Positions 55,354-61,605 of a DNA stretch of 64,000 bases are shown piece by piece. This stretch comes from Clostridia bacterium UC5.1-2E3 (GTDB lineage Bacteria; Bacillota; Clostridia; Lachnospirales; Lachnospiraceae), in contig BBZO01000017.1 in assembly GCA_001304875.1 (NCBI GenBank), forward strand, positions 1 through 64,000, in the 5' to 3' direction. Positions within the stretch are counted from its first letter, which is position 1, and each line of letters begins with the position of its first letter. The notes below the pieces were generated by a model. That model was not told the origin of the DNA, made no database searches, and worked only from the letters and a program-made list of their open reading frames with translations. The translations under genes were made by a program, and so were the position numbers.

Positions 55354-57472
<2,119 letters not shown>

Positions 57473-57488
57473 TATCAGCTAATTAGGC

Positions 57489-59349: not shown

Positions 59350-60654
59350 CTATTTTTCTCTCTCCAGCCCCCAGATTTCCCTGTCTCTCCGGAAATACAG
59401 ACACACGAAAATCCCCGCGAACGCCAGGAAAAAGTACAAGAGCGCGCATCCGCTTCCTTTCCCGTATCCAAAGACCGCCGCCAGAAGCCCATTCTCCGGC
59501 TGCGCCGCCATAAACGGTTCGAACACCCCGTCCACCAGGATGCCGCCGGTGAAATACCCCAGCGGGATCGTGAAAAACTGTAAGGCGTTTCTCACCGCAT
59601 AGACCCGTCCCTGCATGGCAAGGGGGATGTGCAGCCGCAGCAGTGCGTCCAGGTTCGTGTTCATCTGCGGAATGCAGAGCCAGCCGAGGACTGCGCCCAG
59701 GCACCAGACCGGGACCGAGCGCCCGAAGGCCAGGATGAAATTCTCCGTACACATGGCGAACAGCAGAGAGTTCATGATGACCCGCACGCGGTTTTTGGGA
59801 GCCGGGCAGACCGCCGCAAACAGACTTCCCGCCAGATTCGCCGCTCCGCAGAAGCCATTAACCAGCCCCAGCGCCTGTTCGCTTCCGCCATTTCTCGAGA
59901 GAAGCATGGGCGTCAGCGCCGCCTGGTAGATGGAGGCGATAAAATTGATGGCCGCCAGAAACAGGATCAGCCCCAGAATACCGCGGTTTGCCCGCAGAAA
60001 GCCGATTCCCTGCCCTGCGGAGGCCAGAAAGCTCTCGCGGTCCGCCCGTCCAGCCGCAAGCGATGATTCGTCCATCCGGATGAAACACACTAGCGTGACG
60101 AAGGCAAAGAGAAAGCTTGCCAGGTCAAAGAAAATCACCGCCCCGATTCCCCAGAAGCCCAGGACAGCCGTCGCCAGAACAGGTGCCAGAAGCGTCACCA
60201 GGGAATTGGAAAACGCCCGCAGGCCGCCGACGCGCTGGTAATATTTCGCCGGCGTCAGCATGGTGACGGTCACCTCTGACGCGGGCTGCTGGAGCGCGTT
60301 CATGACTCCGCTCACCGCATTGATCACGTACAGGTGCCAGATGGCCAGCCGGCCGCTGATCATGAGCAGCCAGACCAGACAGGTGGTGATCGCCGCCGTG
60401 CTGTCGCAGACGAGCATGGTGCGCTTTTTGCTCAGCCGGTCTCCCGCGACCCCGGCAAATACGCTGAGAAGCACGTACGGGGTGTAGGAGCAGACGGACA
60501 AAAGCGCTGTGGTGAGCGCCGAACCGCTCTGCCCGTAGGCCCAGATGATGAGCGCAAAGCTGGTCATGGAGCTGCCCAGTGACGACAGGCTCTGCGAGCC
60601 CCAGAGAGCCAGAAAACCTTGGAGTTCCTTGAGTGAGTTAAATATTCGTTTCAT
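59350..60654 (-). CDS. MFS efflux transporter
   Basis: Intact 434-residue, twelve-helix transporter. The motif A loop reads GVAGDRLSKKRTMLV, and NAVSGVMNALQQPASEVTVT belongs to the MefA/enterobactin-exporter-like (MFS_3) group, whose members export macrolides and other compounds. AAAGGAG lies 9 bp before the ATG but is followed directly by a sequence that can be paired in the leader. The 5' region carries a small leader ORF and alternative hairpins, so expression is probably controlled by translation of the leader. Confidence 0.92.
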   Translation of the reverse strand: MKRIFNSLKELQGFLALWGSQSLSSLGSSMTSFALIIWAYGQSGSALTTALLSVCSYTPYVLLSVFAGVAGDRLSKKRTMLVCDSTAAITTCLVWLLMISGRLAIWHLYVINAVSGVMNALQQPASEVTVTMLTPAKYYQRVGGLRAFSNSLVTLLAPVLATAVLGFWGIGAVIFFDLASFLFAFVTLVCFIRMDESSLAAGRADRESFLASAGQGIGFLRANRGILGLILFLAAINFIASIYQAALTPMLLSRNGGSEQALGLVNGFCGAANLAGSLFAAVCPAPKNRVRVIMNSLLFAMCTENFILAFGRSVPVWCLGAVLGWLCIPQMNTNLDALLRLHIPLAMQGRVYAVRNALQFFTIPLGYFTGGILVDGVFEPFMAAQPENGLLAAVFGYGKGSGCALLYFFLAFAGIFVCLYFRRDREIWGLEREK

Positions 60655-60656
60655 AT

Positions 60657-60751
60657 GACTTTGCTCCTTTATCGTAGTTTAAGACGAAGATGCAAAGTCC
60701 AATCAGTGCTTGTCTCCATGCAGAAATGTCCTAATCAGACTTTGCATGGAG
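60657..60751 (-). promoter_or_regulatory. Alternative RNA pairings in the MFS leader (candidate attenuator)
   Basis: Four segments of the minus-strand transcript can pair in exclusive ways. A (60738-60751, inside the leader ORF, CTCCATGCAAAGTC) pairs with B (60714-60722, TGCATGGAG, 9 bp) or with C (60690-60699, GACTTTGCAT, 10 bp). C also pairs with D (60657-60664, GCAAAGTC, 8 bp), which lies between the ribosome binding site and the start of the MFS gene. C:D would block translation, and A:C would free it. Confidence 0.65.
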
Positions 60752-60773
60752 CTGCTGCAATGCAGAGCCGCAT
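60735..60773 (-). CDS. 12-residue leader peptide of the MFS exporter
   Basis: The minus strand encodes MRLCIAAAPCKV followed by TGA. Its AAGAGGTG ribosome binding site is 5 bp before the ATG, as good as that of any gene in the window. The last codons form the pairing segment A. Short, well-initiated ORFs of this kind precede mef, erm and other resistance genes and act through drug-induced ribosome stalling. The peptide matches no arrest motif that I know, so the inducer is open. Confidence 0.65.
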   Translation of the reverse strand: MRLCIAAAPCKV

Positions 60774-60819
60774 GGTTTCACCTCTTTTCCCGTCCCGGCC
60801 GGGCCGGGGGATTTCCCTC

Positions 60820-60849
60820 ATTATAGCGCAGGCGCCCACATTTCCGCAA
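60820..60849 (-). promoter_or_regulatory. Promoter of the MFS leader transcript
   Basis: Minus strand TTGCGG, 18-bp spacer, perfect TATAAT. A GC-rich palindrome (60794-60810) lies at the predicted 5' end of the RNA. Confidence 0.6.
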
Positions 60850-60947
60850 GTTTAATAAAATGGAAAGGGAAATTAAAATAGTTTTAATGGAACACCGGCA
60901 GTCCCCGTGTTATGATGAAGAAAATAAAAGCGGACGGAGGACGGGCC

Positions 60948-61605
60948 ATGAAAATCAGCATATCCGAAGAGATCAGAAGAAGCTGTCCCGGTATTGGACT
61001 GGGAATTTTATATTATACAATGGAGGTGAAGGGCAGCGAGGGCCCGGTGCGGGAGGCGTTTGACCGGACCGCAGCGCTTCTGGCCCAGCGCTACCAGGTG
61101 TCTGACATTGTGAACAATCCCCATATCCGGGAGACCCGGGAGGCCTACAAGGCGCTGGGGAAGGCCCCCTCCACCTACCGCAATTCTGCCGAGGCCATGC
61201 TCCGCCGCATTGCCCAGGGCAAAGGACTCTACTACATCAACAATGCCATCGAGATCAACAACCTGTTTTCCGTGAAGACCGGCTACTCACTGGGAACCTA
61301 TGACCTGGACCGTATCGAGGGAGATGTGGAGCTGCGCCGTAGCCAGAGGGGGAGCATTACCGGGGAATCGGCAAGGAAGCTGTGAACATCGGCTGCCTTC
61401 CCGTGCTGTACGATGCGCAGGGGGCATTTGGAAATCCTACCAGCGACAGCCGCCGTGCCATGATCACCGACGGCGTGCGGAGGATTATGACCGTGATCTA
61501 CAGCTTCGCGCCGCGGGAGGAACTGGAGCGCGCGGTGGAGGAGTACCGGGCGCTTTTGCAGGAACTGTGCGGCGTGGAGGACGTGACGACAGAGATTTGC
61601 AGTGA
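60948..61605 (+). CDS. B3/B4 tRNA-binding domain protein (two frameshifts)
   Basis: Stand-alone B3/B4 domain, the editing-like domain of phenylalanyl-tRNA synthetase beta subunit, 219 residues after correction. Typical segments are PSTYRNSAEAMLRRIAQGKG and NNLFSVKTGYSLGTYDLDRI. One G is missing near 61350 and probably one T near 61597 (ATTTTGCAGTGA), which brings in the TGA at 61603. Without the second, the frame would run into the next gene. Free-standing homologues may deacylate misacylated tRNA or bind amino acids, but function is unproven. GGAGG precedes ATG 60948. Confidence 0.85.

What the first reader, a model, noticed from the sequence alone, without database searches (positions are those of the whole stretch)
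60657..60849. Leader peptide and switchable RNA hairpins upstream of an MFS exporter
The minus-strand transcript carries a 12-codon ORF (MRLCIAAAPCKV) with an excellent ribosome binding site, then repeats that pair in exclusive ways. The end of the leader ORF can pair with either of two downstream segments, and one of those can instead pair with the stretch between the exporter's ribosome binding site and its start codon. This is the architecture of drug-inducible translational attenuation, known for erm, cat and mef/msr genes. The peptide does not match an arrest sequence I know. The exact on and off states are not settled: the three pairings are 9, 10 and 8 bp, and I could not find the fourth one expected from the ermC model.
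Basis: partly seen in the sequence, partly recalled or inferred. Interest (0 to 1): 0.8.

Follow-up and report, generated by a model that had tools for sequence, protein, structure and literature searches.

The report
Shared ribosome-stall switch for resistance genes
In front of a putative drug-exporter gene lies a tiny leader gene in an RNA whose segments can pair in two exclusive ways; relatives conserve both the leader and the pairings, the RNA is predicted to switch the exporter on when an antibiotic stalls the ribosome on the leader, and the same element precedes several other antibiotic-resistance-type genes in Clostridia.

Summary
The 12-codon leader MRLCIAAAPCKV* and the alternative pairings are present; the anti-sequestering pairing is 16 bp (reader: 9-10) and the sequestering one also reaches the exporter's Shine-Dalgarno. 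A covariance model found the element in 61 of 397 family genomes and 31 of 391 class genomes. Of 94 loci, 74 precede this MFS exporter family; others precede a Mor-like protein (CD3324, 9), CAT (4), Cfr (2), an esterase and a methyltransferase. A sister form with another leader (119 loci, capped scan) precedes CD3324 (101) or Cfr (7); 66 of 119 have a Vat-like streptogramin A acetyltransferase gene nearby. Cognate arms pair better than swapped arms, with flat controls. Leu3 is kept in 59 of 70 leaders through six codons, so the peptide is selected. In the window, footprint folding predicts that only a ribosome stalled on codons 4-5 opens the exporter start; about two thirds of relatives agree at codon 5. 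Best explanation: antibiotic-induced translational attenuation, an Rfam-absent family with exchangeable leader peptides. Stalling and inducer are untested; the gene associates point to drugs of the peptidyl transferase centre.

The parts
60820..60849 (-). likely promoter: TTGCGG - 18 nt - TATAAT
   Evidence: sequence; perfect -10, weak -35; not listed by the consensus scan
60779..60787 (-). leader ribosome binding site (AAAGAGGTG)
   Evidence: sequence
60735..60773 (-). leader ORF MRLCIAAAPCKV*
   Evidence: consensus M-x-L-C-I-A-x-A-P-C-[KR]-[VA]*; Leu3 in 59 of 70 unique leaders with six codons
60759..60764 (-). codons 4-5 (Cys-Ile): predicted stall position (P site)
   Evidence: footprint folding
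60743..60751 (-). arm 1a CTCCATGCA (pairs with arm 2; predicted OFF form)
60731..60746 (-). arm 1b TGCAAAGTCTGATTAG (pairs with arm 3; predicted ON form)
60714..60722 (-). arm 2 TGCATGGAG
60691..60706 (-). arm 3 CTGATTGGACTTTGCA (pairs with 1b or with 4)
60687..60690 (-). anti-SD tail of arm 3 (TCTT)
60664..60670 (-). exporter Shine-Dalgarno AAAGGAG
   Evidence: sequence
60657..60664 (-). arm 4 GCAAAGTC between SD and start (same eight bases as in arm 1b)
   Evidence: sequence; pairing
59350..60654 (-). MFS exporter, 434 aa, distant from Mef (Mef(B) model 81.7 bits, cut-off 800)

Best explanation
This is likely a leader-peptide attenuator of translation: without drug the RNA is predicted to hold the exporter's ribosome binding site shut, and a ribosome stalled by an antibiotic on leader codons 4-5 would open it. 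OFF: arm 1a pairs with arm 2, leaving arm 3 free to pair with arm 4, which lies between the exporter's Shine-Dalgarno and its start codon; the anti-SD tail of arm 3 covers the Shine-Dalgarno. ON: a ribosome with Cys4 or Ile5 in the P site covers arm 1a but little of arm 1b, so 1b captures arm 3 and arm 4 and the Shine-Dalgarno come free. A ribosome further on, or at the stop codon, covers 1b too and the RNA stays OFF. Shown: leader, arms, conservation, covariation, peptide-level selection, gene associations. Predicted: the two folds and the stall codon. Inferred: that the inducer is an antibiotic, most likely one acting at or near the peptidyl transferase centre, and that the exporter removes it.
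For: Conservation: of 29 other exporter loci returned, 19 match the model strongly (17 of them helped build it) and 5 more are weak, divergent or truncated. Distribution: 61 of 397 family and 31 of 391 class genomes, G000 included, sets overlapping. Covariation: 1b-extension with 3-extension, cognate -12.2 vs -7.2 kcal/mol swapped, 0 of 5000 permutations, 27 non-redundant class-S loci; class L -13.2 vs -9.7, 0 of 5000, 17 loci; five control pairings show no excess. 1a:2 (-13.9 vs -12.7) and 3:4 (-10.4 vs -9.2) also exceed all 2000 permutations, by smaller margins. Peptide selection: Leu3, Fisher p 6e-8; the same RNA arms are read in two frames with different peptides. Footprint: the window flips only at codons 4-5 (P(1b:3) 0.89 and 0.98, SD open 0.76 and 0.78; otherwise SD open 0.19-0.24); in class L the 1b:3 maximum falls on the conserved Asn. 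Associates: CAT, Cfr, and CD3324 operons with Vat.
Against: No stalling or induction data. Over 63 loci the codon-5 peak is partial: P(1b:3) 0.66 vs 3:4 0.32, 1b:3 ahead in 68% of loci; ribosome-free RNA is near balance (0.46 vs 0.49), so OFF must rest partly on folding order. In class L 1b:3 is already favoured (0.59-0.62) when the ribosome is far upstream, and SD opening (0.22 to 0.40) does not fall again beyond the window. In the three CAT elements and the esterase element folded, SD opening hardly follows the stall position (only L077: 0.49 to 0.71 at codon 5). 25 of 72 class-S loci have a T-rich tail after arm 3, which could mean a terminator. 5 of 29 exporter loci have no match; L015 has no in-frame start codon.
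Confidence: 0.8

Rival explanations
1. Ribosome-controlled transcription attenuation, as in mef(E)/mel or vmlR: one of the hairpins is a terminator and stalling changes termination.
For: mef(E) uses the 3' part of its R1 in a similar way, against a terminator (PMC4335068, abstract and passages). 25 of 72 class-S loci have 5 or more T in the 8 nt after arm 3, against 86 of 951 other spacer windows, so 1b:3 plus T-rich tail could terminate in some relatives.
Against: The window's tail is ATCTTCGT and class L has such a tail in 0 of 111 loci, so a T-run is not a family feature; no terminator found on the window's coding strand; a T-rich stretch after arm 4 in 0 of 72. The T/C-rich tail also fits an anti-SD: anti-SD-like 4-mers in 34 of 72 loci against 53 of 951 other windows.
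Confidence: 0.1
2. Amino-acid (cysteine) supply sensor: a ribosome waiting at a Cys codon of the leader gives the same switch.
For: Two Cys codons in the window leader; codon 4 is in or next to the effective window.
Against: Codon 4 is Cys in only 43 of 70 leaders; Cys10 lies inside the paired arms and can be explained by them; in class L the switch point is an Asn; downstream genes are resistance-type, not cysteine metabolism.
Confidence: 0.03
3. Sensor of another ribosome-stalling signal, such as a natural peptide, metabolite or general translation stress, not an antibiotic; the exporter removes a cell product.
For: The exporter is far from the curated drug-exporter families; no inducer is known.
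Against: The same element precedes CAT, Cfr and Vat-containing operons.
Confidence: 0.07

Closest known systems
ermC-type translational attenuation (recalled)
   Same: Leader peptide, four segments, 3:4 hides the main ribosome binding site, stalling frees it.
   Different: ON pairing here is 1b:3, not 2:3; no arrest motif known to me in the leader; the element precedes several gene types.
mef(E)/mel attenuator, leader MTASMRLR (PMC4335068, abstract and passages)
   Same: Efflux gene of the broad Mef group; the 3' part of the first segment becomes the anti-attenuator when the ribosome stalls.
   Different: There a Rho-independent terminator is controlled; here, predicted, the ribosome binding site. 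Leader differs; exporter far below the Mef cut-offs.
CplR of Clostridioides difficile, uORF MR[I/M] (PMC10201436, abstract and passages)
   Same: Clostridial drug-induced uORF with SD sequestering, shown there with reporters.
   Different: Three-codon uORF, terminator plus SD, ABC-F gene; no element of the present type in the passages seen.
cat-86-type leader (recalled)
   Same: Stalling near codons 5-6 opens a hairpin over the CAT ribosome binding site; L276 here has such a simple form with MKRGLDEAF*, read by eye.
   Different: cat-86 has one stem; the present family has a two-state four-arm switch.

Membership tests
leader-peptide translational attenuator (general kind) | short ORF upstream with ribosome binding site, conserved as peptide | tested here: met
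   Leu3 kept through six codons; Asn(-4) through two codons in the sister class. Translation itself not measured
leader-peptide translational attenuator (general kind) | mutually exclusive RNA pairings, one hiding the main ribosome binding site | tested here: met
   (pairing potential and covariation; no probing)
leader-peptide translational attenuator (general kind) | ribosome stalling on the leader induced by a compound | not testable with these tools
   needs toeprinting or ribosome profiling; footprint folding only predicts the codon
leader-peptide translational attenuator (general kind) | control of translation, not of termination | tested here: inconclusive
   no terminator in the window, but T-rich tails after arm 3 in 25 of 72 class-S relatives
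ermC-type | ON state by 2:3 pairing | tested here: not met
   the predicted ON pairing is 1b:3, with strong cognate excess; a 2:3 pairing was not separately scored
mef(E)/mel attenuator | MTASMRLR-like leader and Rho-independent terminator | tested here: not met
   leader differs; no coding-strand terminator; features taken from PMC4335068
any Rfam 15 family | match at gathering score | tested here: not met
   0 matches in the window at gathering score; in six relatives one match with E 0.49, below gathering score and outside the element
Mef macrolide exporters | curated NCBIfam cut-off | tested here: not met
   Mef(B) 81.7 of 800 bits, Mef(A) 77 of 675

The most novel reading that the evidence does not exclude
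A single RNA switch, absent from Rfam, is used across Clostridia as a common chassis into which different arrest peptides are plugged (LCIA for the exporter, KRGLD for CAT, [KR]N[KDE][VA] for CD3324-Vat operons, THN-type for Cfr). Together they form a dispersed set of inducible resistance genes against drugs of the peptidyl transferase centre, with the Mor-like protein CD3324 as a likely regulator whose own translation is the drug sensor.
Probability: 0.55. Interest if true: 0.85.

Novelty: new variant of a known kind. Interest (0 to 1): 0.74.

Why it matters
A conserved attenuator that precedes many gene types gives a search handle for inducible resistance genes in Clostridia, including ones not recognised as such (the MFS exporter, CD3324, the two hydrolases). 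It also offers new leader peptides whose stalling, and the drugs that cause it, can be tested directly in vitro. That the same RNA arms are read in two frames with different peptides separates the RNA switch from the drug sensor.

Tried and rejected
Rfam gave no match (at gathering score; one chance-level match). The consensus promoter scan did not list the proposed promoter. Plasmid cfr(B) and cfr(C) regions (L252, L251) have no match to the model at E <= 1; the cfr plasmid record L253 starts at the gene, so its upstream was not tested. CAT genes at large mostly lack the element: of 25 loci searched, 2 match at E <= 1e-3, both already known (L274, L275). CD3324 genes at large: 4 of 19 loci searched match at E <= 1e-3, three of the four from one genome. 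A first arm assignment picked wrong arm-3 sites in some loci; one search used a fixed rule (last CTTTGC-like site before the SD) and dropped 22 of 94 loci that failed it: 7 class-L ones (L087, L109-L112, L115, L118), and L025, L027, L078, L079, L081, L082, L084, L085, L098, L105-L107, L113, L116, L117, in part truncated or spurious. Pattern hits L156, L167, L180 and L182 had no reference gene downstream; L156 and L182 look like chance coding-sequence matches. I considered macrolide +X+ arrest for the KRK/KKR stretch of class L and phenicol-type Ala context for class S (both recalled) and could not decide.

Literature: listings only; passages for PMC10201436 and PMC4335068. No description of this element was seen in these; they cover an open-access library only, and that is not proof of absence from print.

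Full report
WHAT IS THERE. On the minus strand, a 12-codon ORF MRLCIAAAPCKV* (60773-60735) with a good ribosome binding site ends 80 nt before the start (60654) of a 434-aa MFS exporter (59350-60654). Arm 1a CTCCATGCA pairs with arm 2 TGCATGGAG (9 bp). Arm 1b TGCAAAGTCTGATTAG pairs with arm 3 CTGATTGGACTTTGCA (16 bp with G-U). Arm 3 can instead pair with arm 4 GCAAAGTC, between the exporter's Shine-Dalgarno and start codon, and its tail TCTT pairs with the Shine-Dalgarno. 1a and 1b overlap by four bases, so the states exclude each other. The free RNA looks bistable: minimum energy (-39.5 kcal/mol) is the 1b:3 state, the centroid is 1a:2 + 3:4; z = -3.19. One copy was found in the genome, whose assembly is 86.7% complete. 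The exporter matches the Mef models far below their cut-offs.

CONSERVATION. Of 200 genomes searched in the family, 107 had a match to the exporter at E <= 1e-3. I read the upstream regions of the 29 other loci returned. 19 carry the element with model E-values of 5e-13 or better (17 of these 19 are among the 18 sequences the model was built from, the 18th being the window's own). L027 and L025 match weakly (E 3e-4 and 2e-3), L009 is truncated (E 4e-3), and L026 and L029 show a divergent form by eye. L016, L021, L028, L030 and L031 have no match at E <= 1. With covariance model R1 the element was found in 61 of 397 family genomes, 31 of 391 class genomes and 9 of 398 phylum genomes; the samples overlap and each includes the window's own genome. 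One of the 9 (L250) looks like a chance coding match and another (L245) like a remnant.

COVARIATION. On the first 18 sequences, 94.4% of cells of 1a:2 + 3:4 pair (0 of 500 shuffles as high) and 97.2% of cells of the 1b:3 core (2 of 500); the number of core pairs with a double change is not unusual for 1b:3 (237 of 500 shuffles as high). A stronger test compared pairing energy of arms from the same locus with arms swapped between loci. In 72 loci (22 of 94 dropped by the arm rule) and in 27 non-redundant ones, all three pairings beat all 2000 permutations, 3:4 and 1a:2 by about 1.2 kcal/mol in the 27. For the 1b/3 extension, outside the conserved core, cognate is -12.2 against -7.2 kcal/mol, 0 of 5000 permutations, in 27 class-S loci, and -13.2 against -9.7, 0 of 5000, in 17 non-redundant of 103 class-L loci; five control pairings with the spacer or the 5' leader show no excess. 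Relatedness is reduced, not removed, by the 75% identity cut.

THE PEPTIDE IS SELECTED. Among 70 unique class-S leader sequences (72 of 94 loci had a start 6 or 7 codons before the GCT), residue 3 is Leu in 59, through all six Leu codons; third-base choice depends on the first base as Leu coding demands (Fisher p 6e-8). Residue 5 is Ile in 59 of 70, nearly always ATT, so RNA constraint is possible there. Codons 8-12 overlap the arms and cannot be used as evidence for the peptide.

SAME SWITCH, OTHER GENES. Of 96 loci searched with R1, 94 matched at E <= 0.002. The first reference gene downstream of these (tblastn, about 1.4 kb) is: MFS exporter 74, CD3324 9, CAT 4, Cfr 2, esterase 1, methyltransferase 1, none 3. 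Representatives: CAT, Pfam CAT 4e-57, below the NCBIfam CatA cut-off; Cfr, 598 bits, above its cut-off of 550; CD3324, above cut-off in both tested, with a Pfam Mor match. In these 119 loci CD3324 is first in 101 and Cfr in 7; a Vat-like gene starts within 2.6 kb in 66, a linear amide hydrolase-like gene (labelled by eye; no Pfam or NCBIfam hit) in 48, an alpha/beta hydrolase in 16; MFS in 3, none in 4; many loci end early, so these are lower bounds. The Vat-like representative scores 243 bits against the Vat family model (cut-off 300). Hosts include Clostridium symbiosum, Robinsoniella peoriensis, Terrisporobacter mayombei and Paenibacillus sp.. CAT leaders are MKRGLDxAPC[EK]A* in 3 of 4, the fourth being MKFCIAVFPCKA*; a CAT with a simple hairpin (L276) also has MKRGLDEAF*. 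So peptide type tends to go with gene type while the RNA arms are shared. The reverse does not hold: most CAT and CD3324 genes sampled lack the element.

HOW IT LIKELY WORKS. I folded each RNA with the stretch under a stalled ribosome removed (footprint assumed to reach 15 nt beyond the first base of the P-site codon). In the window, only stalls at codons 4 and 5 give the ON form (P(1b:3) 0.89 and 0.98; SD open 0.76 and 0.78); at the other positions SD opening is 0.19-0.24. Over 63 class-S loci the peak is at codon 5 (1b:3 0.66, 3:4 0.32; 1b:3 ahead in 68% of loci; SD open 0.52 against 0.32 at later codons). In 103 of 119 class-L loci 1b:3 peaks (0.91-0.94) when the P site is on the Asn that is conserved in 79 of 95 leaders. 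The geometry makes some window inevitable; that it falls on conserved residues in both classes is the informative part. Against this: the three CAT elements and the esterase element folded do not switch clearly; in class L 1b:3 is already favoured with the ribosome far upstream (0.59-0.62) and SD opening stays at 0.35-0.40 beyond the window; ribosome-free class-S RNA is near balance, so folding order must help keep it OFF; and 25 of 72 class-S loci have a T-rich tail after arm 3, against 0 of 111 in class L, so termination may contribute in some relatives.

WHAT THE SIGNAL IS. Not shown. CAT, Cfr and Vat-like neighbours make a peptidyl-transferase-centre antibiotic the best guess; macrolides are not excluded.

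COMPARED WITH THE KNOWN. It works like ermC-type attenuation (recalled) but with 1b:3 in place of 2:3. mef(E)/mel uses a similar trick against a terminator (PMC4335068). CplR's uORF is three codons with a terminator (PMC10201436). No Rfam family matches, and six leader strings were not found in the paper library apart from one unrelated text. I rate it a new variant of a known kind.

Noticed in passing
L125-L243, downstream of class-L elements: Recurrent gene order CD3324 - Vat-like acetyltransferase and/or linear amide hydrolase-like and alpha/beta hydrolase genes behind the attenuator; the hydrolases may be unrecognised resistance genes.
   Followed up: partly
L259 (G000:C31:26675-26920): The window's own genome has a CD3324 gene preceded by another short ORF (MLNPIDIIA*) and, by eye, pairing arms of different sequence; it does not match model R1.
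   Followed up: partly
L009: The start of the exporter leader runs directly into the interior of the exporter, as after a deletion.
   Followed up: no
L276: CAT gene with leader MKRGLDEAF* and, by eye, a single hairpin over its ribosome binding site, cat-86-like.
   Followed up: no
L026, L027, L029: More distant exporters carry a different leader, MLCHxxxxLxVxLCTRS...KLVQR*, on similar alternating arms.
   Followed up: no
window 55354-57482: The elongation factor G gene appears split into two frames (617 aa ORF, then its C-terminal part in another frame); likely a sequence error or frameshift.
   Followed up: no
window 60912-61385: A B3/4-domain gene (Pfam PF03483) is divergent from the exporter and shares the intergenic region.
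   Followed up: no
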